A stretch of 64,000 nt of DNA from Paracyclopina nana (taxonomy: Eukaryota > Arthropoda > Copepoda > Cyclopoida > Cyclopettidae): the NCBI GenBank assembly GCA_019096065.1, contig JAGUCH010000005.1, positions 310,001-374,000 of the forward strand. Reading direction: 5' to 3'. Below are positions 15,428-46,310 of the stretch, piece after piece. Within the stretch, counting starts at the first letter, position 1; every line of letters starts with the position of its first letter. Position numbers and translations under genes: made by a program. The notes beneath the pieces are model-generated. The model was not told the DNA's origin. It was given only the letters and a program-made list of their open reading frames with translations, and made no database searches.

Positions 15428-15997
15428 CTAAGTCAGCAGCCCCTGGTTCATGTTGTTGTCCGTTGTCGGGTACCACGAGTACTGGTTAAACATGCCGTGT
15501 GTGGCCGCTGCAGCTGCCGCAGCTGCCGCGGGGTTCATCGGGGGCTTGATGTCCTGCTGTTGGTGTATCGAATGCCAGCCCGGAGGGCTGTTGCCCCCGT
15601 GGTGCATATGGTGGTGGGAGGGGCTCATGTCGCCGCCAGGCGAGGGCGTGGCCTGTGGCACATGTCCATAGCCCCCGTTGGGGATCCCATGATGCCCTGG
15701 ATGGTACTGATGTTGTTGGTGTTGTTGATGTAGGTGCTGTTGTTGTTGTTGATGCTGGTGGTGCTGCTGCTGCTGCTGAGGGGAGTGGTTGGAGGGCGGG
15801 ACAGGAGACATTTGGCCTTGAGAGGAGGTGGGCGTGGCGGAGTGGCCATGCATCCCGCCCATGGGTGAGTCGCCAGGGGGCGGGGACCCGCTGTTGAGGG
15901 GCTGGCCGGTCAGCATGTTGGGCGGGGCCACGCCCCCACCGGGCGCCTTCATGAGCTTCTTGTATTTCGACCGTCGGTTTTGGAACCAGATTTTCAC
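15428..15997 (-). CDS. Dll: Dll last exon: homeodomain helix 3 and C-terminal tail
   Basis: The acceptor is TTTTTTTGCAG before 15997; the frame runs 189 residues to a TAG at 15428-15430. It opens with [19 protein letters not shown], completing the homeodomain recognition helix (W48, F49, Q50, N51). A Pro/Ser/Gly-rich segment follows, then a Gln/His-rich block of about 35 residues, a further Gly/Pro/His stretch, [11 protein letters not shown], a run of about nine alanines, and the C-terminal Dll signature NQYSWYP ... NQGLLT. Gln/His and Ala runs are common in developmental transcription factors and are length-variable. The high GC content makes several other frames open here; those are shadows. 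Confidence 0.95.
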   Translation of the reverse strand: MKIWFQNRRSKYKKLMKAPGGGVAPPNMLTGQPLNSGSPPPGDSPMGGMHGHSATPTSSQGQMSPVPPSNHSPQQQQQHHQHQQQQQHLHQQHQQHQYHPGHHGIPNGGYGHVPQATPSPGGDMSPSHHHMHHGGNSPPGWHSIHQQQDIKPPMNPAAAAAAAAATHGMFNQYSWYPTTDNNMNQGLLT

Positions 15998-18900
15998 CTG
16001 CAAAAAAAAGCAAAGGTGCGTTTTAGCTATGAGGCATTTCTGGTTAATCCATGTGTGGATTGTATGACTACTGCATGGCATGTGTGAACCACACCGAGGA
16101 ATAAATTATTACAAAGGGTGAATAAATAACTGGTACTAATCGCAAAATTACGTGCCACAATGGGGAGGGTGTACTACTAGCTGCTTTCCCTTTTTTGTGG
16201 ATCCCCATTCATATTGAAGGACATTGACAATATCCATCAAGTCCTTTGAGGACAGCTGTAAGAACGCCCTCTACTATATTTTCTTCAAACTACATGTGTC
16301 CCCCCCCTTCACATTATTATTTACAGTGGCCCTAATTACAGCCTTCTCCCATCTAGCGCCTCTCTGGCAAACATTCATGAGCATTTTTAACCAGCCTCAA
16401 AAATGTGCTGACAATGGCTTGAGGTGACAAAAAAAGTTGTATTATTTATGTATTTAAAGCGTGAGTGAGTGGCGTAACAAGCTTTAAATAAATCAGCCAA
16501 GGCCTTTACATATTTATGCCAAAAGGCCATCAAACAGCGGGAATGTGTGACAACAGCAGAGAAGACGCATGCTTGAAAAAGCGTTTGTCATTAATTGTTT
16601 ACAAGTTGACGTTGCCGGTATGTCATTAGCTTGAAAAAGGCCCATCAAAGCATTTGGAGTGAGGAAAAATCGCCTGCATTCAACTGCACGAGCAGTAGGA
16701 AAAAAAAATCCGACTTGTTGTGTAGTAGTAGTACTTTCTTGACGAGAAATTCCAGTTACTTGTGCGACAATAATTGCTCCTCAGCAGTGATGTTTCTCAG
16801 AATTGCTGAGCATTTTCTTTGCTCAGCTTTTTCCCAACGACTCAGGTTTCGCAGAAGAAAAATTCTTGAGGCAAATCTCACACGCCACTTTGCCTCTGAT
16901 TTTTTTCATTATTATTGGTGGTCACATCATGTGATTTGGATGCTGCCACCACTACCACCACGCTGAAGATTCTGAGAACAAATGCAAATCTTTTTGCATG
17001 CAACCTCACACTTGATGGCCCTTGGAATTTACTGCATCGATTTTTACACATTTCAATTGCAGCAGCAGCAGGGAGAAGCATGGCACAGTTTAAAGCATGC
17101 AATAATGTTTAGTTCTAAGAAAACAAGGCCTGCTGGGCTGCTTCCCTATGATTATGGAATATTTGGAGATTTCTCGACAACAAAGCAACTGACGTTGTTC
17201 ATTTTTACCACTGCACAAGCAGTTGAGTGCAGGGGATTTTGCCAGAGCACCAATGCTTGCAAGAGCCTATTTCAAGACTCCAGGAAGCCAACAACGGATA
17301 CTTGTAAACAATTAGCGACAAAGCAAATTCAAGCTGATATCGAGGTATCGTAAACCAGCCAATCCCAGGAAAACTCACTCAGCACAGGGTCGTACACTTT
17401 GAGAGAGGAAATAGAAAGGACCCTGTGTGGTGTCGCAGTTTTTTCGCCTGCAGGTCATGCGATGTCAACTAGGCATCATGATAATTTTTGTCACCTCAAG
17501 CCATACTCAGCACATTTTGCCAGATTGTCAAAAAAGTGGGAGACAATTTCTCAGAAAGGAGACTGGAGGATCAGAGGCACTACTTCTTCTTCTTCTGTAT
17601 CTTTTGAAAAGAAGTAATAATAATGGACTTTTCAACACACACACACATGATTTGGATCTTCTTTTCAGCCCCCCTCAAAAAAGGGACCAGATTCCTTTAT
17701 AAAATGACAGTCACGAAAAGATCCAGCAGCAGCATATTTGCAAGCCAGTGCAGCTCAGCAGCAGAGTGACCATAATTTTTTTCTTCTGTGGTTTTTGCCA
17801 AAATTCCTGCGCTTAACAAGTTTATGGCATGTTTTCCCCAGGTTGTGGCCAACAAATATAAATGACATTATTATGCCTGAGACTTCTTGGTTGTGGCCAC
17901 AAACGAGCAACACCATGAAATGAGATTATGGTTAACTCAGCAGCTGCTTACATTTGTGAAAAACATAAATAAAGCAGTTGGCAAATATGCTAACTTGAGC
18001 CAATCAGCCATCACAATTGTATGTAGATAGTATGCAGGAAAATGCAATAAAAGTTCAATGTCAAATGTGTGTGCTGCTATAAAAGGTTGCGACAAAGATT
18101 TTTTTCCATATTGGGAAAATGAAGGAACTCATGCGATTCAAGCCAACAGAGCAAAACAAGCTGATACTACTACAGCTACACTAGCGGAATTATGATAGAC
18201 GATGAGTGACGAGATTCGGTGTAATTAGTGAGAAAAAGTGGCCACAAAGTCTTGAAAGTGACCAGTAGCAGTGAGGAAACTGGGACAAGTCCAGCAGCCA
18301 CTTCCAAATCAATGCCTCAACTGATGAAGAAATTTTGCCACCAAAATCTTCTAAAAGTGTATAAATGGTAAAGTAGAGTCCAATTTCCTGCAAACTGGGC
18401 AGCTATGCAGTGGTTACATGACAACTTGTCGCTTTGAAGCGCCTTGCTTCACGCTACGATCTCAGCTTCTGGCCGAGCTGAGAAGTAGGTTAAGGCTTCA
18501 AAAGTCTCCTCTGGGCCAGAGAAGGCAATCTTATTTTATGCCAGAACCAGCTAGGAGCCCTCCAATGCCTGGATTTTGCCAGCTTCCACCTGTCGCGAAG
18601 ACAGATCTGGAAGCCTTGAAGTCAAGCAGTATTTGTGGATCCCACATGTGTGTGATTGTGCGTCAGACTTGGCTCTGCCTGTGTACATGAATTTCCGAGA
18701 ACCAGCCTTATTGCATGCATGTCATGCCACCATATTTTTTTCATCTTTCATGCTACTTTGAAAAAAAAGGAGTGTACTTGTACATAGGGGGCATTGCAAT
18801 AGTTATAGGAAGCTTGTGTCTGACGTTTCCACAGCATTGTGTTTCAATTCCTTCTAGTGCTGCTAGTAAATGTCCTTCATAAAGATATATACTACTACAC

Positions 18901-21900
18901 TATGCATGACTACATTTTGTTGAAGAGACCGGACGTCCCCTCATCCTGTGATGAGAATGATGTAGTAGTAGTAACAGAGTGTCCTGGCAAGTGCCCTAAA
19001 TATACTGCTAGCACAATTTTGCAGGCTTAGCTGGGCTCTGAGAGGGTCTTGTATAAAATAACATTTCATTCACTCACTGCATTGAGGCTGTGGAAGCCCT
19101 AATCTGCCTCTCAGCTTGGCCATGAGCTGAGAAGTTAGCGTGAAGTCAGCCGCTTTAAAAGCGACAACTCAGCCCTAAATAGTCTGGTAGCACAATTTTG
19201 CAGGCTTAGCTAGTCTTGTATTAAATAATAATTCATTCACTCACTGCATTGAGGAGGCTATGGAAGCCCTAATCTGGCTCTCAGCTTGCCCAAGAGCTGA
19301 GAAGTTAGCGTGAAGTCATCTGCTCTGCTGAGCCTTAAAAGCTAAGTGATGGCTTCTGCCTTTGATTCAGCCAATGTTTGGTGATGTCAGTGTAATTTTG
19401 AGACATGTATCTAGCTGCTCCTCTCCTGTCATGATGTTAGGAGCCGTTGCTCACAATCTGTAGAGCCTCAAGCTACAACAAGGGTTTTTTTTACATAAAC
19501 TTGTGTTTCTGAATTGAGGCTCAAACTTGTTGAATGGAACAGCAGATAGAAGTACAGGGTGAGTCAAAGGCACTATATGTTTCAATTCAAGTAGCTTTAG
19601 CCCTGAAAAAGGCCTTTAATCTATCGCCTAATCCATAATGTGACATTCGCCATTTATGATCGACCCTGTGGTTGTCGTCAAAAAAAAAGCAACGAACAAA
19701 ATATGCTTTGAGCTCAAAGTCCTGCAGCAGGCCGCGCTTGGGTGTCTCAAATGTAGATATGATACAACAAAACATGAAAAGGGAAGAAATGAAGTCTCAT
19801 TCTCATTTCAACTGTTGTTGAAGTTGTTTCTTCATTCACTCCACCAGTACGAATGTTGGTTAAGTGCTGATACTATCAAAGGGAGAATGACGACTAGCTA
19901 GCAATAAAGTACCAAGAGTGATAAATTGTCATGTGTGGTTTGTGGTGGCTCTTTTTGTTCTGTATGTGTGTACTACTGCATTCAAGTTCCGAACATGAAC
20001 ACCTCATAAATAAGAATGAAATAAATAGCTGAAGCCACAAGTATGAAAGTATATGGCACTTGACATTTGGCAGGCCACAAATGCATAATTCCACATGTAA
20101 TATCGCTTATTTCTACAAGTGTGTTGCATTGTCTTTATCGACACTTGACTTCAACAACGCTTGGCATGAGACAAGCACTCCTTGTGTACCCTTGAAATGT
20201 TTTGTGCAGCCCTAGTTACATTTGGGCAACCACAGAGCAGCCTGCTGAAGGACTTTGAGCTGCAAGCAAAAAAGTTCGATTGCTTTTTCCTGACACACAA
20301 GCTGAGTCTATCGTTATGATCTCAATCGACACTTTTGGCTAGGCTATAACAATAGATGTCAATATACATGGATGATGTGCTTTCGAAAGCAGGGAAGACA
20401 GGTGAGAATAGGAACACCTGTAGGCTTGAGGACAACAAGCCTTTCATGCTGCATTTAGCTAATGATGGCAGCTATAGCCCCGAAAGGGTGTACATATCAT
20501 CATATAAAGCACATGTTGGTGAAGATCAACTCAAGCACAGTAGCCCATGGTTGAAAATCCCTTGAGGGAGCTTGAATGTCTATCAGAGAGGATTAAGTAC
20601 TCAATCCATAATCGCCTATGGGTGAAAAATCTCTGCTCTAGTAAACATAATGTTATCTGATGCTCTGCCAAGCAAAATCATATTGTGCATCTCATCTCGC
20701 AAGACTGATCATATTAGCTACTGCCAAAAAAATGGAAGGTGAATCTGGCCTACAAATCTCTGCTACATTTTTTTAGAATGCTTCCAGATGCTCATCAGCG
20801 TTGAAATTACTTGGTGTTTTGACAACTGCAAGTCTTCTTTATGATGGATGATGGACTAGGGAAAATGTGTGTGTGTGCAAAACTGCCATGGAAAATGTCA
20901 ACCAGATACTTGCTATCAAAGCCACAAAAACAGATGACCAGAGGGGCTTTACTTCTTCAAAACCATGAGTTAGGAGAAGAGAGAGAAATAAAATTGCTAC
21001 CTTTGCGGTCATGTATCATGTGCATGTGAACTCATTCCCAGTGTAGCTGCGGCGGCGGAGCGGCATATACGAAATGGTATAAAATACAGGGTGCCCCACA
21101 TACGCATCATGCCAATGTTCGACATAAAAAAAGTCACTGCAAGAGTTTCGCCTAAGCTCTTCAAACTTGACGCATGACGCAAGAGTTGAAAAAGGGTAAA
21201 CAGAGGCCCATGTTCAAAATTGTTTACATCCAAAGAGGATCACTGATCATCGTCATTTGGAAAGAAACATTGATGCCTTCAACGTCAAATGAGTTGATGC
21301 GCAGAAATTACGAAAAGTCGCCACCCTGTATACCATTGCACGGTCGGTTGCCTTTGGCTATGGTAGTTTAGGAGCGTGATGCAGCCGAGAGGACCTCACT
21401 GTGTCTCATGCATCATCTAATGCTAGACTACAGGCCGTTTTCATATTGGCAAAAAGAGCAAAGCAAAGCTCATGAAAGCTAATGCTCAATGGTTAAAGTT
21501 ATTTCGCTCCATGATAATTTACAGAAGCAGCTGATTTGTTTTTGATGATGAGCATTTCCCTAGCTTTTTCGAGCTTCACTTTGCTTTCTTAGCCAATATG
21601 AGAACGACCTGATATGAAAGTAGTCCTTCTTCGATAATACTTAAAACCGCCCCGAGCCACGTGGATTTTTTCCCCAAGTTTCTTACCTGCAAAACAAATG
21701 AACAGTCAACATTAATACTGCATAGTGATTCATTGGTCGCATTAGGCGTCAATATTTCATTTGGTCTGAGAATGAAAAAGGATCCTTCGCAACTGGAATC
21801 AATTTCAAGCATGGCTCACTGAAAACCCCGAAAGAACTTTTGGCACATGCGTCAAATTTCCAGATCGTGGGTGAAAATCCTGCATGAACAATTGTTGAAT

Positions 21901-24900
21901 AAAACGCATGTCGTCGCAGGTTTTAACGACTCTTTTCTCCCTCTCTCAAGATCCATTAGGAGGCCAAGCATGACCAACAGCGACAACAAATGATAGATCC
22001 TAAGCTATGTGGTTCTGAGAACATTTCGACAAAATTTTTCCACCAGCCACAAATATCACATTTTTTTGGTACCACTGAGTGTGACACTTTGGTCCCACGC
22101 CCCCGTAGTGATGTGTGTCCCATTAAAGCCTAATTACCTGAGCCTCAGAGGAAGAAAGCCTGATTTTGAATACCAATACAACAGAGTCAAGCAGGAGCAA
22201 GTAGTGGGACAAAACCACAAGAATGACAAATTGGCTTGGCTTGTTAACCACATGTGGATCAAGATCAAGTTTTATGGGACACTTAAGCATGTTTTTGGTG
22301 TATGGGTTGCAACAATTCTCTCTCTCAGTTGACACATACATTGCGTGTTGTTGCACCTCCACTAATTGCCATTACACTTCGATCCATAAAGTATAAAGTA
22401 AATGCCTTTTCCCCCACATGAAAAAGTACTTTTTTAAAATTTTCCAAGGTAGCCCTGGCCAGCTTGTAATAGCCCTTGGGGAACATATGCAAATGAGACA
22501 AAGGCCACCTAGCTTAGCTATTTTTATGTGTGTTGCTGAAGCAGCAGCTGAAGTAGAATAAGGAACCCATTAACATAAAAGATGTATGAAAGAGATAATA
22601 ATAGCAAGAGCTGCAACAGCTGATGATAGTTGACATCCTGATGTTATTGAAGAAGAAACAGCCAAAATCCTAAATTGAGTGGTGATAGATTGATGTGCCA
22701 TTTTGTGGTTGGCCTGTAGTCTATTGGATTAGGGTCTACTCAACCATTGGTGTCATGCATAATTTATGGCATCAGCTGCTGCCAGCTTTTGACCAACTTT
22801 TTGGGACACTTTTGTATTGATCCACTCAGTCAACCACCAACAACAGGTACAATTTCAAATGGGTTCAAAACTTCTGTCTCTCTCTTCATTATTCCATTTA
22901 TCAAAGTCAGGCAGTACAAAAAAAATACAAGGTACAAAAGCCCAGCATGAAAATGCCATTGACTGATGACACAAAAGAAGGATATCATTCTTAAACAGCA
23001 CACACAGCTCTTAATTCATTAAAGCATATCAGCACTGAAATTTCTCCATTAAAAATTAGCCACTTCTGAACTTTTTCTGGGCCAGAAATTTGACCCAGGA
23101 TGAATTGTTGTAGGCTGGTAGCCAAGCTTCTGACCTCCTGGAGGGCTCCTAATATATTACTTGTCTCATACCAAATTAAAAGTGATGGCTTACAAAAAAA
23201 CCAGAAGGTCTTCTTCTTCATGGGAATCTGATAATTGGTCCCTTTTCAGGGCCAGCAGCAGCCAAGCCCCCCATGGGTCAAAATTATTACTATCACTGAG
23301 CATCATCAAAGAGCCAAAGAATACATTAATTAATCTCTTGGTTTTTTTGTCATGTCGACAACTCAGTTTGAATGAGTCGAAACTCAGCATGAGGACAAAT
23401 TAGCTCATCTTCACATTTGTGGCTTTTTGAGGCTGCCAATGGCTTGCTTTCGAGCATTGAATGCATGAAACTACAACTTTGTCGAGAATAAATTTGACTC
23501 AGTTTTGATCTGCTACTTTTTTTTGCCACCAATTGGCTTGCCAATGCTTTTTCAGCAAGGCATTTTCACTACATAAAGCCATTAGCAAGCCATTAGCTAG
23601 CAAAAACTGCTCGCAGATCAGCCATGAGCCTGATTGTTTTTTTGTTTTTTTTCCAGAGTGAATTAAACGCTGAGGAATTCAATCGCAATAAATCCTGCTA
23701 CTTGTTTCTGGCTCACAGATGTCTAGCTAAGCCGAATCATAAAGGTGTAAAAGTTACATTTCCTCCCATAAAGTTTATTGGCAGAAACTTCTTCCATGAT
23801 GTCTATAAACTAGTTGAATTGACCATAGTGAACAACATCAGAAAAGCCGCAAAAGAAGGTGAAGTTGAAGCTGTAGTAGTAGCCTCACTAACAGTTTACC
23901 CTCTGGCAAGGATAGGAAAAACAACGACCTGTGAGAACTCATCTACATCCACAGCAGCAGCAGCAGAGTCCAATTTACAATGCTGGAGAGGAGTCATTCA
24001 GTTCAGGAAAAGCCTCAAGGGCCAACTCATCTGCTCTGCTCTTGGAGCTGCTATGATTTATTGGACTTGATCTGACCTAATGGCAAAAGCCTAACAAGCT
24101 GCTTTCAAGGCTCAAATGCTGGTTTTTTAAAGATTTGCCTACTTTTTAATCACCCCGGGTCGCGGCACCAATTTTACGTATTTTGACAAATGTGACTATG
24201 AAAAAATTGATACATATTTTTTTTGAAACACATGACAAGGGCCAGAGTTCTACCGTTGGTAAAGCAGGTAGTTAGTTCTCAAAATAGAAGTCAGTAGCTT
24301 GAAATTGACCTTTTTTTCCCTTCGACTCTGAACAAATTGCAAAAAAAAAGGAGAAGAAGGCAATAAATGGAAATAAGACGCACTAAAAGAATCTTTTTCA
24401 TGCAACATTGACTTTTCATGATTCAGAACGCGTGCCACAAATTGATTTTTGTCGAATTTTTCGCCATGAAGAAATTTCCCAAATCATATTGAGTTGTCTG
24501 TAATGCATACAACATCCAGCTTAGTCACATGACGAGGCAAGTTCCCAAAGAGCAGCAGCAGAGGCAGGCCCAAGTCATCTGTATTTTTACCTAGTTAGCC
24601 CTGCCAATAATTAGTGTGGGGGGCGGGCCTGTGGGCCACCCCCAAATCTCCAAAGTAAGCCAAAATTGCTTTTTCCCAATTTTAAAATGTGAGGCAGGTG
24701 AGAGGGGCTTTCGGTGTATTATTTGTTGGCTCCTTTGCTACTGTTGAAGCCACAATTCGACTATATACAAGAGTGAATATGCCTTGGAGCTATGAACTAG
24801 CAGTATAACATAAAGTGCTTGGGATCTCTCACAGCATTCTACTTCATGCTTGATTGCTCTCATGATCAAACTACTTACAGCAATCAGCAATCTAATAAAC

Positions 24901-27900
24901 AGCTCACCTAATTTTTAGCCCAATAATTTTTTTTTTGAAATTCATGTATAGACGGCCACGCTGTGCGCGGGTGCTAAACGGCTTGGCCAAAAATGTTCAA
25001 AGATCCATTTACTTTAATGATCTTGATATCATTACTGCTCATATGTTGCTGCAGTTGTTGCTGCTGTGTGGTAAACATCCACGGAAGCCGCAAAAAAGTG
25101 GCCACAAAGTAGATAATCGCCCTTATTTCTTTCTTGAGATAAAGAAGCCTCTGACAATTCCGCGAAAACTGACTTTTTTTCAAAAAAAACCCAAAATTAA
25201 TTTTAAAAAAGAATTTTTTCATTTATTTCTAAGTCCATAAATTAATTCTTTTTCATTCAAAAAAATTGAATTTTTTCTCTTTTTTTTCTTTTTTCCTTTT
25301 GGAAAGTGAAAATTTGAGAGGGCAGCAAAAATTTGGCTGGAATTGGATTTTGATTAAATAGACGCCAAAATGTGACACATCTTTTGACGAACTTTTTCTG
25401 GAGTGGTGGAAGAAGACGGAAATGGCAGCATTATAATCCTTTCCAACAATGGTCGGCACAATGGCCGACAATTGACTGCACTTTGGGACACCCCAGGACC
25501 AAAAGAATGGACTGACCACTGTGTAAGAACTATTAATTCTCCCTTTGAAAAAGTGATTAATGCCATTATTAAAAAAAGAGTAAATAATTTGACTGTTCCT
25601 CAGATCAACTTGGTAAATAAAAAGCCTGTTTATGGTCAAGTTGGCCACAATTGTATTTTTGTGTGCTTCAAAATGCTTTTATTTTGTGTCTTCATTTTGA
25701 GGGGGCTTTAGACATGCAATGTCAATGCACAGTGGACTGTTGCCCCCCAAAAAATCCCCATTAAATATTTTTTCTTTGATCAATTGAAAAAACCAGGTTT
25801 TGGATTTTATGAAAATAAAAACAAGGTTTTATGTGCATATCCTGTGCTGTTGTGTGAGATTTTTCAGGGATTTATTCCCACAGTGGAAGAGAGAGAGGAA
25901 GAGTTCGTGATATTCTTTTTAGTTCCATTTTTGTAGGGGAGAACACAACCAAAACAACTGAAAGTGCAACACTCTGCAAAGCAACACTTTTTCCGCTCAA
26001 AATTAGCCGGAATCGATAGTTTTGACTAAATCATGGCGCTCTCATTTCACCCCGAGTCGCGCCAACTGGTATGAGTAAAATACGGCCGCCATGAAATGAT
26101 TTATGGCCGAACTTTGTCTATTATTGATGGGCATTCTTTTGAGTAGTTTGTGGAGAGGCTCTATAATTTGCTTATTCGGCCATTTGTCACCCGGATCATC
26201 AGCTGATTTTAAACATTTTCCTACCTGAGTTTGTGTAATTCCCAAACTGGCTGCCAACTCAGCCCTTTCTGGCAGTGCCAAGTACTGAGTCCTTTGAAAG
26301 CGTCGCTCCAATTGTTGAATTTGTAACGAAGAATAAATGGACCGGGGCTTCCGGATCTTCTTGCCTTTCCCGTTGACCCGGGTGATAAGCTCGCCATGCT
26401 CCACCACAAGTTCTGGATCACCTGCGAAGATAGCAGGAGATGTTTTTTTTAGCAAAGCGGTTTCCCAACTTTTTTCCATTCAAAGCCAAGTCAGCAACTG
26501 CATCAAGAACTTGTCGAGAACTTGTCGAAAAGTTTGAAAATATCTCGATAAATATACAAAAACAAAGATGCTTTCTTTACAGGAAAATAAAGTTTTCGAT
26601 AACTTCTTTAAGAAAGTATCGACAACTTCTTTAAGAAAGTCTCGACAACTTCTTTATAAAAGTCTCGACAACTTCTTAACAAAAGTATCGACAACAAATT
26701 TTGATTTTAAGCAATCAAAAATGGTCTAAAGTAAGAATTATCAGGGTAAAGAAAGTGTTGACAATTTCATTTGAGCTAAAAAAAAAGCATCGAGAACTTT
26801 TCGAGAATGGCATCGAAAACTTGTTGAGAATTGCATAGAGAACTTGCTGGACTTGACTTTGAGGCATACACAACACAACAGGCGAAATTGAGAAAAACGG
26901 ATGATGATACTCTATGTTTTCCCAGACAACTTTTGTTTGTCTGAGAAGCTTATTTTGCGGAGCTTTGGAGCAGACGGGTCAACGGCAAAAGTCAAGAAGA
27001 TGTCCGGAATGGATTGAGATTGGCAGCCAAGTTTGGTGTGGTAAAGGAAAGATCCTACCTGAGTCTGCGTCAAGCCCAGCGTGGATGCCAACTCTGCTCT
27101 TTCTGGCAGTGCCAAGTACTGAGTTCTTTGGAACCTGCGCTCCAATTGCTGAATTTGCAGCGAAGAGTAAATCGTTCGGGGCTTCCGCATCTTCTTGCCT
27201 TTGCTGTTGACCCGGGTCAGCTCACCATTTTCAATGGACTCTTTGATGTCATCCTCTGAAAAAGGGCCTAAGTGAAATTTCAAATTTTAATAGATTCAAA
27301 AAAACTGAGTTCATTCAAAATGAGGATAATTGAGCAAATTACTATAATAAAGGGCAATTTTAAAAAATTCCATTTTTCCGCCAAATCGCCAGCGCGTTCG
27401 AATCTCGGAAGAAATATCGCACTTTTACGCCTTGAAAAGCGTGAGGCAATTCGGCCAAGATTTCCGGCTCAGAGCGCGAAAAACGCTTTCCGGATCAGCG
27501 GCCAAATTGGCCGGAAAATCGGGCCGGAATTTTTTTAAAAAATATATTTTTTTTTAAATCTTACCGTCCCGACCAGGAGATTGACTGGTGGGGTATCCCA
27601 AGTGGTGATACCCCGGGTAGGAGTTCTGCCCGGGCATCGGGGCAAACGGGTAGCTGCCCAGATGACCCGCCCGGTTTCCGAAGCCCGCCTCTGCCCCTCC
27701 CGCCCCGGCGGGATTTCCGTAGGGCGAGCGGTAGAGGCCGTAGGACTGTTGGTGCTGCAGCTCCATCAGCGACTTGACCTGATCGGCAGCTGACGCGACA
27801 GCTGACGCAGCTGACGACACCGGCGGGTTGCCCGCCGCCGACCCGCTGTTGGCTGACCCGCCCCCGCCGCCCGTCGACTCATTGTCAGAGCCCCCGCCCG

Positions 27901-27952
27901 AATACGGGCCGGAGCCCGACAATTCTCCGAAATTCAGCGTCGTGGCGACCGG
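15428..27952 (-). CDS. Dll: Distal-less homeobox transcription factor gene (gene span, 5' end unresolved)
   Basis: Gene-level entry. Dll is a nuclear sequence-specific transcription factor of the Dlx/Dll homeobox family, required for distal limb and appendage outgrowth in arthropods. The minus strand carries an N-terminal exon (27565-27952), two alternative homeobox exons A (27059-27255) and B (26225-26421), and a shared last exon (15428-15997). Splice phases agree throughout: phase 1 into A or B, phase 0 into the last exon. Either choice gives about 374 residues from the open frame, normal for the family. Introns are 309 nt (1 to A), 637 nt (A to B) and 10,227 nt (B to last exon). The intron at homeodomain position 44/45 is the classical Dlx/Dll position. 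Diagnostic motifs are MELQ near the N-terminus, [11 protein letters not shown] before the homeodomain, the LPERAEL homeodomain core, and QYSWYP/NQGLLT at the C-terminus. Identity is very secure; the start codon is not. Confidence 0.96.
18995..19345. repeat. About 180-nt direct duplication in the Dll intron
   Basis: Two copies sharing GCACAATTTTGCAGGCTTAG, TTCATTCACTCACTGCATTG and GAGCTGAGAAGTTAGCGTGA. The second copy has small deletions. Confidence 0.8.
21085..21330. mobile_element. Mariner-like MITE (weak)
   Basis: Begins TACAGGGTG and ends CACCCTGTA, the terminus common to many arthropod mariner elements, with TA at both edges. Inverted similarity beyond the first 9 bp is poor. A matching single end, TACAGGGTGAGTCAAAGGC, lies at 19553. 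Confidence 0.35.
23639..24070 (+). CDS. Unrecognised open frame inside the Dll intron (doubtful exon)
   Basis: A plus-strand frame of about 143 codons follows a near-perfect acceptor (a T-rich tract with TTTTTTTTCCAG ending near 23655) and ends at a TGA at 24068-24070. The product would begin [20 protein letters not shown] and includes a basic middle and an Ser/Thr/Ala stretch. I recognise no domain. It is long for this base composition, and the acceptor-like start is suggestive, but codon use is unremarkable and no partner exon was found. It may be a chance ORF. Confidence 0.18.
   Translation, partial: FLFFFQSELNAEEFNRNKSCYLFLAHRCLAKPNHKGVKVTFPPIKFIGRNFFHDVYKLVELTIVNNIRKAAKEGEVEAVVVASLTVYPLARIGKTTTCENSSTSTAAAAESNLQCWRGVIQFRKSLKGQLICSALGAAMIYWT
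26225..26421 (-). CDS. Dll: Dll homeobox exon B (alternative, distal duplicate)
   Basis: This second homeobox exon is also exactly 197 nt. Its acceptor is TCTTCGCAG before 26421 and its donor CAG then GTAGGA at 26225/26224, so it has the same phases as exon A. With the leftover G of exon 1 it encodes [20 protein letters not shown], then homeodomain residues 1-44 from [10 protein letters not shown] to GITQTQ. It is uninterrupted with intact splice sites. Between homeodomain residues 7 and 35 it differs from exon A at nine of 29 codons, and every difference is synonymous. That is the mark of two exons both kept under protein-level selection, not of a decaying copy. Both copies share the unusual Ile13 and Glu17, so the duplication probably postdates those changes. 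Confidence 0.92.
26575..26700. repeat. About 23-nt tandem repeat in the intron between Dll exons A and B
   Basis: About four and a half copies of a 23-nt unit of the form ATCGACAACTTCTTTAAGAAAG lie between the two alternative homeobox exons. Looser relatives containing TCGAGAACTTGTCGA continue on both sides (about 26505-26560 and 26790-26850). Each unit includes the near-palindrome TTCTTTAAGAA. The position makes it a candidate for RNA structure or splicing-factor binding that helps choose between the exons, but it could be an ordinary minisatellite. Confidence 0.7.
27059..27255 (-). CDS. Dll: Dll homeobox exon A (alternative, proximal to exon 1)
   Basis: The exon is 197 nt, bounded by a strong acceptor (CCCTTTTTCAG before 27255) and a donor (CAG then GTAGGA at 27059/27058). 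With the single G left over from exon 1 it encodes 66 residues: [20 protein letters not shown], then homeodomain residues 1-44 from [10 protein letters not shown] to GLTQTQ. The key homeodomain residues R5, L16 and F20 are present. Residue 13 is Ile and residue 17 is Glu, where Dll usually has Leu and Asn (family recollection). The third helix, with W48 and N51, is supplied by the shared last exon. Exon B differs inside the homeodomain at positions 1, 6, 36, 37 and 40 and strongly in the 13 residues upstream. Confidence 0.93.
27565..27952 (-). CDS. Dll: Dll exon 1: N-terminal region
   Basis: The frame is open from just after an in-frame TAA (27953-27955) to a donor at 27565/27564 (GACG then GTAAGA), leaving a phase-1 junction. 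From the TTG at 27922 it encodes 119 residues: a Gly/Ser-rich start, an Ala/Ser stretch, [13 protein letters not shown] (related to the conserved KSAFMELQQ of Dll), [20 protein letters not shown] (related to YPFPPMHQNSYSGYHLG), then SPGRD at the junction. No in-frame ATG lies between the TAA and the conserved part, so translation must begin in an upstream exon or at a non-AUG codon. One candidate upstream mini-exon is listed at 28384-28408. The exon is strongly GC-rich against an AT-rich background, as is its upstream flank. Confidence 0.88.
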
Positions 27953-44664: not shown

Positions 44665-46062
44665 CTGAAATGTAACTGGAGTTATACCTGGGTTATTCAA
44701 GTTATGCCATGAGTTGCCTGTTAGGTATAAATCCTCAATCCAAATGTAATCTTGGTGGAAAAAAGTCGCGAAACCCTCATAAATGGCAACAGCTGATTGT
44801 GGGCTCATTATGTAAGTTGGACCTGCGCAATAATTCGGGTATTCATTTGGGCTCCAGTCCATTTTGGAAACAAACCTGGATAAAATACAGGGATTTGTTA
44901 ACTTAATTTCCAATAAATGTTTCCCGCTGTTTGTTTTTGATTTTTTTGCTTAAAAAACTTGCCAAAAAGTCGGCTGTTTGTTGTGGTTTTAATTGTGTTG
45001 AAAAAACGCGCCAAAAAGTCAGCTGCTTGTTATTGTTTTTGTGCAAATGAAAGAAACTTGCCAAAAATGTCAGCTGTTTTATTGGTTTTTAAAATAATTT
45101 CTAAAAAAACCGGTGAGACTTAAAAGTCAGCTGTTTCTTATTGATTTTTTTTGCTTAAAAAACTTGCCAAAAAGTCAGGTGTTTGTTGCAGTTTTAATTA
45201 TGTTAAAAAAGTGCCACAAAGTCAGGTGTTTGTTATTAATTTTGTACAAAAAAAAAGAAACTTACCAAAAATGTCAGCTGTTTTATTGGTTTTTTAAACA
45301 ATTTAAAAAAACCGGTGTGACGTCATAATAACAAACAGCTGAACAAACAGCTGACTTTAAGGTAAAGTCAGCTGTTTGTTATAATTTTTCGTTAGCTTAA
45401 AACACTTGCCAAAAATGTCAGCTGGTTAATTTTGTTTGTATTGTGTCGAAAAATCTTTTACAAAAAGAAAGTCAGCTGTTTGTTTGTGGTTTCCCATAAA
45501 AATCAGCTGTTTGACTTTCTATTACATTTTTTTAAATAAAAGGTTCTTTGTTTTGTTTACCATTTGGATTCAGGCCATCTCATGGGAATCAGCTGATCTG
45601 GCTGAGTCAGCACATTGCAGTGAATTTTGCGCGGATTTGCACTGGCCAAATAGTTATCCAAGAAGTCCAAATTGACAATGACATCATCATCCAGTTTGAT
45701 GAGCCAATCTATTTTGGCAGTTTCCACTGTGGAAATCCAATGAAAAGCAGCCAACAGCTTCATTGCCACAGTGTGGTAATTATCTTCAACTTGCGGTATA
45801 AGCAAGTCATGGTATACCTCATTTTCATACCATATAACCCTGGTATACTCCTCAGGTATACCAACATCTCCTGCTTGAAGTATACCAAACAAGAACAACA
45901 ATTGGTAATTGTAATTGGGCAATTTGTGAGTTCTTCCAAAAGATTGCCTAATTTGATACCTGGTATCCCAAGAATACCATCTGGTTATAACCAGCATAAT
46001 CACGTTGGTATCTTGCATCACCTCTCTTGAAGTTATACTAAAATTGCTGAGGGTCAAAATAC
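44477..46062 (-). CDS. Beta-1,3-glycosyltransferase, GT31 family (3' part of gene)
   Basis: Golgi enzymes of this family (Pfam Galactosyl_T) transfer galactose, GalNAc or GlcNAc in beta-1,3 linkage using UDP-sugars and Mn2+. Two exons are clear: 45561-46062 and one starting at 44875. Motifs in order: LVITRWYSWDTRYQIRQSFG (the family RxxIRxTWG block), FLFG, ENEVYHDLLIPQVEDNYHTV with MKLLAAFHW, the metal-binding KLDDDVIVN (the DxD motif), MRWPESKW split by the intron, YPNYCAGPTYIMS, and IEDLYLTG (family EDVYxG). Exon junctions are phase-consistent (AAATG/GTAAAC donor; TTTTATCCAG acceptor). The transmembrane N-terminus lies in upstream exons not found. The exact donor and acceptor substrates cannot be told. 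The last 60 codons are in another frame (see the separate entry). Confidence 0.9.
44665..44875 (-). CDS. GT31 exon with YPNYC and EDLYLTG motifs
   Basis: It starts after the acceptor TATTTTATCCAG at 44876 and continues the previous exon's split Trp codon: FVSKMDWSPNEYPNYC, then AGPTYIMSPQSAVAIY, a FFHQDYIWIEDLYLTG stretch, and GNSWHNLNNPG. Two donors are possible: CCCAG/GTATAA at 44688/44687 and TTTCAG/GTATTT at 44665/44664. Choosing the first, with an acceptor at 44665, leaves a 23-nt intron and restores the frame of the C-terminal segment. Confidence 0.85.
44935..45520. repeat. Tandem repeat filling the GT31 intron
   Basis: Imperfect units of about 60-70 nt with the core AACTTGCCAAAAAGTCAGCTG followed by TTTGTT. 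Around ten cores are visible. The repeated CAGCTG is an E-box-like palindrome, but the array looks like an ordinary intronic minisatellite. Confidence 0.75.
45561..46062 (-). CDS. GT31 exon carrying the DxD motif
   Basis: The exon is 502 nt. Its acceptor TGTTTGTTTAG precedes 46062 (one upstream base completes the first codon) and its donor is at 45561/45560. It encodes the N-terminal two-thirds of the catalytic domain from the IRQSFG block to MRWPESK, and its last two bases TG pair with the first G of the next exon to make the Trp of the conserved KW. The DDD motif occurs about two-thirds of the way along. The downstream intron (44876-45560) is filled by a tandem repeat. Confidence 0.9.
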
Positions 46063-46310
46063 CTAAACAAACATAACTGAGTTTAACCAGTTTGCTTCCA
46101 GTTACAAATTACCCAAGTCTTGAATTTGATGATTTTTTGTCTGGTATTCTTTGCTTAAAATTTTCTGGCAGCTGAAAATTATTGCAAAAAGGGCCAACAT
46201 TTTGGCAAAGAATAGCATCACTTGCTTTCTCTTCATTGTGCTTTTGTACTCTGAATGCCAAGAACACTTGTGGCTTTATTTGCAAAAAATGTGCTCCACA
46301 CAATCTTCTA

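What the first reader, a model, noticed from the sequence alone, without database searches (positions are those of the whole stretch)
26225..27255. Distal-less with two tandem, apparently mutually exclusive homeobox exons
Two complete copies of the exon encoding homeodomain residues 1-44 lie 637 nt apart between a single N-terminal exon and a single recognition-helix exon. Both are exactly 197 nt, both enter in phase 1 and leave in phase 0, and both have intact splice sites. One gene could therefore make two Dll proteins that share the recognition helix but differ at homeodomain positions 1, 6, 36, 37 and 40 and in the 13 residues before it. Positions 1 and 6 lie in the minor-groove N-terminal arm; the others are near the helix 2-3 region. 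I know of no described Dll with this arrangement.
Basis: partly seen in the sequence, partly recalled or inferred. Interest (0 to 1): 0.95.

Follow-up and report, generated by a model that had tools for sequence, protein, structure and literature searches.

The report
Two alternative homeobox exons in Distal-less
In this copepod-like crustacean the limb-patterning gene Distal-less carries two interchangeable copies of the exon for most of its DNA-binding domain, and relatives have and use both kinds, so one master gene very probably makes two versions of its protein.

Summary
Exon A (27255-27059, minus) and exon B (26421-26225, minus) are both 197 nt, have intact GT-AG sites, and lie between one N-terminal exon and the only recognition-helix exon found (15997-15428). 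Using both or neither shifts the frame. The genome search shows no second Dll locus. The closest named relatives are copepods. Among 333 listed proteins there are two separate exon classes: 147 B-type segments (Ser6, Ile40) and 50 A-type (Thr6, Leu40), both with Glu17; 130 other Dll/Dlx segments lack Glu17 (one of three queries was exon B, which favours B). Eight A-type and 12 B-type proteins continue into helix 3. Lepeophtheirus salmonis has records with the same N- and C-termini and either exon. Two unnamed relatives pair one identical N-terminus with either exon. Three other sources encode A then B in tandem. A tree fits one origin for each class. So this is an old, constrained alternative homeodomain. 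It works like C. elegans unc-62 exons 7a/7b, in another homeodomain class. RNA from this species, regulated choice and different DNA binding remain untested. Ten searches of the held library listed no report of it.

The parts
27565..27937 (-). Dll N-terminal coding exon, shared by both forms; 3' end at 27565, 5' limit not fixed (first in-frame ATG 27766; conserved reading begins at CTG 27937)
   Evidence: corresponding N-terminal sequence precedes A or B in relatives
27059..27255 (-). exon A: residues before the homeodomain plus homeodomain residues 1-44 (Met1, Thr6, Ser36, Thr37, Leu40), 197 nt, phase 1 in, phase 0 out
   Evidence: A class conserved in relatives
26422..27058 (-). 637-nt intron between A and B, with 23-bp tandem repeats at 26596-26695 and 26787-26846; holds an ATG at 26479 in frame with B
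   Evidence: its folding energy is not unusual for this window
26225..26421 (-). exon B: alternative copy of exon A (Ile1, Ser6, Ala36, Ser37, Ile40), 197 nt, same phases
   Evidence: its 44 homeodomain residues are identical in 111 of 147 B segments of relatives
15998..26224 (-). 10.2-kb intron between B and the last coding exon, no further homeobox copy found
15428..15997 (-). shared last coding exon: homeodomain residues 45-60 (recognition helix, [14 protein letters not shown]...) and C-terminus, stop TAG 15430-15428

Best explanation
This is the single Distal-less gene of a copepod-like crustacean. Exons A and B are an old tandem duplicate used as alternatives. The spliceosome joins the common N-terminal exon to A or to B, and then to the common recognition-helix exon, giving two Dll proteins. 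Using both or neither exon breaks the frame, so only single use gives a complete homeodomain (shown from sequence). Both proteins keep the same recognition helix and therefore probably the same core DNA site. They differ in the N-terminal arm, the end of helix 2 and the linker before the homeodomain, so affinity, flanking-base or minor-groove preference, or partner contacts probably differ (inferred). Choice is probably set by tissue or stage, as for C. elegans unc-62 7a/7b (inferred by analogy).
For: Equal 197-nt exons, phases, splice sites and frame incompatibility. Purifying selection between the copies: dN/dS 0.11, 0.17 and 0.09 by three methods for codons -6 to 44. No second Dll locus and one helix-3 exon found. 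Relatives: 12 B-type and 8 A-type proteins run into helix 3. L. salmonis P0012 (A) and P0024 (B), listed with a contig of the same length, share 73 identical N-terminal residues and 249 identical residues to the C-terminus; P0001 (B) and P0134 (A) share 64 identical N-terminal residues, P0162 (A) and P0170 (B) share 71. Tandem A-then-B: P0016 and P0020 read through A, intron and B; the tail of P0176 (A) is exon B in another frame, 63 of 63 positions against at most 8 in 200 shuffles. Class separation: 0 of 147 B segments have the A-type NSK; 48 of 50 A segments have ENG/NSK. One origin for each class fits the tree: A 83/67, B 90/93, A+B against 30 other Dll 99/96.
Against: No RNA from this species. 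Most supporting sequences are unnamed clusters at 90% identity, so counts are not species counts. That jgi and lgn contigs are RNA is inferred from their lacking the intron. Protein reads cannot show double inclusion, which would be out of frame. P0134, P0135, P0162 and P0170 stop within three residues after Gln44, as if the next intron were retained; of the two unnamed pairs only P0001 continues to helix 3. L. salmonis P0024 has about 40 extra residues between the shared N-terminus and B, so the two records differ by more than the exon swap, and they may be predicted models. Of the eight A-type helix-3 proteins, P0012 and P0022 are one species and P0026 lacks the linker; P0002 and P0021 come from a source that, as I recall, assembles at protein level, and P0021 looks chimaeric. 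An in-frame ATG at 26479 would let a transcript starting in the A-B intron make a B-only form. No regulation was shown.
Confidence: 0.88

Rival explanations
1. Exon B (or A) is a relic or rarely used copy that is no longer made into protein in this species, although relatives use it.
For: No transcript of this species was available. Divergent A- and B-like copies occur in some unnamed relatives, for example P0178, P0187 and P0288.
Against: Both exons here have intact splice sites and open frames, low dN/dS, and each keeps its class's residues; the 44 homeodomain residues of window B match 111 of 147 B segments and those of window A match 19 of 50 A segments exactly.
Confidence: 0.06
2. B has its own promoter and start inside the A-B intron, or A and B are separate neighbouring genes, rather than splicing alternatives behind one first exon.
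For: B's open frame begins with an in-frame ATG at 26479, 19 codons before the exon, right after a stop at 26482. Tandem homeobox genes do occur here: two homeobox exons 4.6 kb apart on contig C8 belong to two adjacent otd/Otx-like genes.
Against: The Otx-like pair has a helix-3 exon for each copy; A and B share one. B follows the ordinary Dll N-terminus in P0001, P0008, P0009, P0013, P0017, P0018, P0019 and P0024. The reading upstream of B differs among relatives, so the ATG looks like chance. Promoters were not tested.
Confidence: 0.05
3. The duplication is an assembly artefact.
For: Another part of the assembly looks doubled (C6 against C10).
Against: The copies differ at 17% of bases over codons -6 to 44 and their introns do not align; both classes recur in independent sources.
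Confidence: 0.005

Closest known systems
Caenorhabditis elegans unc-62 (Meis/Homothorax) exons 7a/7b
   Same: Alternative splicing chooses between exons 7a and 7b, which encode the N-terminal region of one homeodomain; the two forms have different tissues (7a intestine, 7b neurons and hypodermis), and RNAi against 7a but not 7b lowers a vitellogenin reporter (passages of PMC3585033; legend passage of PMC4448998).
   Different: unc-62 is a TALE-class cofactor in a nematode; this is an ordinary-length Distal-less homeodomain in crustaceans. Regulated use is shown for unc-62, not here. That the two exon pairs arose independently is inferred.
Distal-less / Dlx genes of other animals
   Same: Same family and homeodomain; nearest solved structures are DLX-5 (4rdu, 2djn) and DLX-3 (4xrs).
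   Different: The 130 other Dll/Dlx segments examined lack Glu17 and all have Thr6 and Leu40; of the 129 proteins that hold them only P0027 holds two segments.
Other tandem mutually exclusive exons in transcription factors, such as mammalian FOX and Drosophila srp, as named in PMC9013439 (passages)
   Same: Mutually exclusive exons in a transcription factor gene.
   Different: Different protein families; that their alternative exons lie in the DNA-binding domain is recalled, not read here.
Vertebrate COE/EBF duplicated HLH exon (abstract and outline of PMC2394523)
   Same: Tandem duplication of an exon for a functional motif of a transcription factor, kept over long evolution.
   Different: There the duplicated exon became obligatorily included; here inclusion of both would shift the frame.

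Membership tests
Distal-less/Dlx family | Dll/Dlx-type homeodomain | tested here: met
   The named best matches are Dll/Dlx proteins; DLX-5 best in PDB; Pfam Homeodomain 76.9 and 74.2 bits.
Distal-less/Dlx family | Conserved sequence outside the homeodomain | tested here: met
   Alignment to Tigriopus Dlx-6-like, 60% identity over 100% of the query; shared N-terminal and QYSWY C-terminal stretches.
Mutually exclusive exon pair | Tandem homologous exons with equal phases and intact splice sites | tested here: met
Mutually exclusive exon pair | Joint inclusion or joint skipping does not give a working product | tested here: met
   A+B reaches a TGA at the junction with the last exon and loses helix 3; skipping both shifts the frame and loses the homeodomain.
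Mutually exclusive exon pair | mRNAs carry one or the other exon | tested here: inconclusive
   Met by protein records and intron-less contigs of relatives; no RNA of this species, and double inclusion is invisible to protein searches.
Mutually exclusive exon pair | Choice is regulated | not testable with these tools
   Needs stage- or tissue-resolved RNA.
unc-62 type alternative homeodomain | Alternative exons encode the N-terminal part of one homeodomain, recognition helix shared | tested here: met
   unc-62 as described in passages of PMC3585033
unc-62 type alternative homeodomain | TALE-class (Meis) homeodomain | tested here: not met
   Homeobox_KN (the TALE-type model, recalled) scores below its cut-off (20.3 and 19.8 against 24 bits); ordinary Homeodomain well above. 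It works like unc-62 but is not a member.

The most novel reading that the evidence does not exclude
A two-way homeodomain switch in Distal-less arose once in the copepod stem or early in copepods and has been kept across the class. Exon B, nearly frozen in sequence, and exon A run separate Dll programmes (for example appendage against neural or sensory development) from one gene, doing by splicing what vertebrates did with several Dlx genes.
Probability: 0.55. Interest if true: 0.88.

Novelty: new variant of a known kind. Interest (0 to 1): 0.8.

Why it matters
Distal-less is the textbook gene for animal appendages (general knowledge), and outside the A and B classes all 130 Dll/Dlx segments examined here, from arthropods to vertebrates, have Thr6 and Leu40. 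A lineage that keeps two versions of that domain in one gene offers a clean test of how arm and linker residues change a transcription factor's work while the recognition helix is held constant. It also means that expression or knock-down work on copepod Dll that does not separate the two exons would mix two proteins.

Tried and rejected
RNA-structure switch in the A-B intron: it folds better than its shuffles (z -4.3, -3.6), but 6 of 49 same-sized stretches of the window score as low or lower, so competing RNA structure is not supported; without relatives' DNA covariation cannot be tested. Steric or U12 incompatibility: introns of 309, 637 and 10,227 nt with ordinary GT-AG ends give no sign of it. 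Splicing-factor motif scan over 25700-27600: a single TGCATG, at 25718 downstream of B; not informative. Third homeobox copy in the locus: none found. Another tandem alternative pair in this genome: the C8 candidate is two adjacent otd/Otx-like genes; other close pairs of homeobox hits were not examined. Rfam: 0 matches in the window.

Classification: a first rule based on ENG/EHG mislabelled B-like exons with ENG as A; I replaced it by residues 6 and 40. Four Glu17 segments fit neither class (P0015 first copy, P0177, P0303, P0305), and P0287 has a B-type linker with an A-type homeodomain; conversion, further copies or short-read chimaeras, not resolved. 331 segments were counted from 327 of 333 proteins; six without a complete segment were dropped (P0003, P0005, P0006, P0007, P0023, P0086). 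The 333 are the best 120 listed by each of three searches with 2004, 2230 and 844 hits, of queries A form, A-intron-B frame P0016, and exon B; the last favours near-identical B exons. The tree used only the first two searches, the earlier rule (so P0015 first copy and P0177 counted as A, P0026 left out), duplicates removed and other Dll cut to the first 30; window A and B enter only as the identical rows P0004 and P0001; its bootstrap had not settled and it has 64 columns.

I lowered the main confidence from 0.90 to 0.88 and raised the own-start rival from 0.04 to 0.05 for it.

Not done: structure prediction, a search for the Tigriopus B exon (only A-type Tigriopus records were seen), any check of stage or tissue, promoters.

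Full report
WHAT IS THERE. On the minus strand, a Distal-less gene reads: N-terminal exon ending at 27565; exon A 27255-27059; exon B 26421-26225; last coding exon 15997-15428. A and B are both 197 nt, begin after AG and end before GT. The introns are 309, 637 and 10,227 nt. Spliced with A or with B, the gene gives a Dll protein with a complete homeodomain. With both, the frame shifts and a TGA appears at the junction with the last exon, so helix 3 is lost. With neither, the frame shifts and no homeodomain is made. Homeodomain differences are M1I, T6S, S36A, T37S and L40I; positions 45-60 are shared.

MORE THAN CHANCE. Over codons -6 to 44 the copies are 83% identical, with 7, 1 and 18 changes at codon positions 1, 2 and 3, and dN/dS of 0.11, 0.17 and 0.09 by three methods. 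No intron alignment reaches E 0.01. In the 92-Mb genome the only matches of the Dll query above 70 bits are the N-terminal exon, A and B of this locus; the recognition-helix exon of this locus also matches, and the rest are weaker homeobox matches elsewhere. A scan of the window finds no third copy.

WHOSE GENE. The best named matches of the A form are Tigriopus californicus (60% identity over the full length) and Lepeophtheirus salmonis, both class Copepoda, orders Harpacticoida and Siphonostomatoida. I therefore call the source copepod-like; its species is not known to me.

RELATIVES HAVE BOTH EXONS. Three protein searches listed 333 proteins; 331 complete 44-residue homeobox segments from 327 of them were classified. 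147 have Glu17, Ser6 and Ile40 (B class); 50 have Glu17, Thr6 and Leu40 (A class); 4 with Glu17 are mixed; 130 lack Glu17 and are other Dll/Dlx. The linker agrees: none of 147 B segments has the A-type NSK, and 48 of 50 A segments have ENG/NSK (one has no linker, one, P0287, is B-like). The other 130 segments all have Thr6 and Leu40. B varies less than A: before the exon-B query, 45 B segments had 5 kinds of homeodomain and 39 A segments 15 (window included, earlier rule); with it, 12 kinds in 147 against 14 in 50. Entries are 90% clusters, mostly unnamed, so these are not species counts, and the exon-B query inflates B.

ONE GENE, TWO PROTEINS. Eight A-type and 12 B-type proteins run on into the helix-3 sequence. 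L. salmonis P0012 (A) and P0024 (B), both listed with a contig of 50,690,067 bases, share 73 identical N-terminal residues and 249 identical residues from TQTQV to the end; P0024 has about 40 extra residues before its B exon. P0001 (B) and P0134 (A) share 64 identical N-terminal residues; P0162 (A) and P0170 (B) share 71. P0134, P0135, P0162 and P0170 stop within three residues after Gln44, which looks like retention of the next intron; they show the exon 1 junction to A or B but not the next one. No listed entry shows A joined directly to B, but such a product would be out of frame and invisible to this search.

SAME GENOMIC ORDER. P0016 and P0020 are open frames that read A, then intron, then B. 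The tail of P0176, after its A exon, matches the B exon read in another frame at 63 of 63 positions; 200 shuffles reach at most 8. The intron after A in P0160 and P0172 matches the intron before B in P0167 and P0165 (E 1e-7 to 3e-11). P0015 holds two A-like copies in tandem, so arrays may have grown in some lineages.

AGE. In a tree of 63 exon sequences, A forms one side of a branch (83/67), B another (90/93), and A plus B are separate from 30 other Dll (99/96). Support for A is moderate, columns are few and the bootstrap had not settled. With L. salmonis carrying both classes, the duplication should predate the split of its lineage from the window's. Whether it covers all copepods is not shown: for Tigriopus only A-type records were seen. 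For codons -6 to 44, dS between A and B is 0.75, 0.50 and 0.67, low for so old a pair; for codons 1-44 alone it is 0.87, 0.49 and, by maximum likelihood, 23.7, that is saturated. Gene conversion or constraint on silent sites are possible and untested.

HOW IT LIKELY WORKS. Shown: frame, splice sites, conservation, and use of both classes by relatives. Inferred: the spliceosome includes A or B; both proteins read the same core site, since the recognition helix is common; arm, helix-2 end and linker differences change affinity, flank preference or partner contacts. Residue roles rest on general knowledge of homeodomains. How exclusivity is enforced is open: the A-B intron is not unusually structured for this window. 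Against a pure splicing model, B's open frame has an ATG at 26479 inside the A-B intron; A's has none. The upstream reading of B differs among relatives, so I take this ATG as chance, but a B-only start is not excluded here.

COMPARISON. The nearest precedent is C. elegans unc-62, in which alternative exons 7a and 7b encode the N-terminal region of a TALE homeodomain and have separate tissues (passages of PMC3585033; PMC4448998). This gene works like it but is not TALE class. Ten library searches (those aimed at Distal-less, Dlx or crustaceans are 7, 15, 24, 29, 30 and 47) showed no title or abstract start that reports it. Lists were capped, and the library lacks most subscription papers. Two listed papers were checked by passages: a Calanus transcriptome that measures one DLL unigene and names no isoforms (PMC7460014), and a prawn study with mutually exclusive exons in another gene and no mention of Distal-less (PMC9767951).

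Noticed in passing
window 27937-27766 (-): The Dll N-terminal reading shared with relatives (LNFGEL...) starts at a CTG (27937) 15 bases after an in-frame TAA (27955-27953), with no AG between for a splice site and no in-frame ATG until 27766. Some relatives have an ATG at that place (P0018, P0036). Possible non-AUG start.
   Followed up: partly
window exons A and B, codons 21-35: Long identical DNA stretches between A and B despite apparent great age; chimaeric exons P0287, P0303 and P0305 in relatives. Gene conversion, silent-site constraint or short-read chimaeras.
   Followed up: partly
window 26479-26477 (-): ATG in frame with exon B, directly after a stop at 26482, inside the A-B intron; chance or a B-only start.
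   Followed up: partly
P0015, P0177, P0187, P0288-P0300, P0310-P0333 (some of these database proteins): Further divergent A- and B-like exons in unnamed relatives, some with many different downstream intron reads, suggesting larger homeobox-exon arrays in some lineages.
   Followed up: no
P0027 (Notodromas monacha, ostracod): Gene model with two copies of the same canonical Dll homeobox exon in tandem: a recent independent duplication or an assembly error.
   Followed up: no
P0134, P0135, P0161, P0162, P0170: Open frames ending two to seven codons after homeodomain residue 44, as if the last intron were retained; could encode a Dll lacking the recognition helix.
   Followed up: no
L017 (G000:C8:3704800-3714600): Two adjacent otd/Otx-like genes on the same strand, each with its own helix-3 exon: tandem gene duplication (the name is from the sequence, recalled).
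   Followed up: partly
G000 contigs C6 (about 6.96-7.05 Mb) and C10 (about 0.08-0.16 Mb): Four homeobox hits in the same order and with the same scores on both contigs, spacing different: uncollapsed haplotype or segmental duplication.
   Followed up: no
window 45557-46108 (-): Open frame with a galactosyltransferase domain (PF01762, 48.7 bits), a probable neighbouring gene.
   Followed up: no
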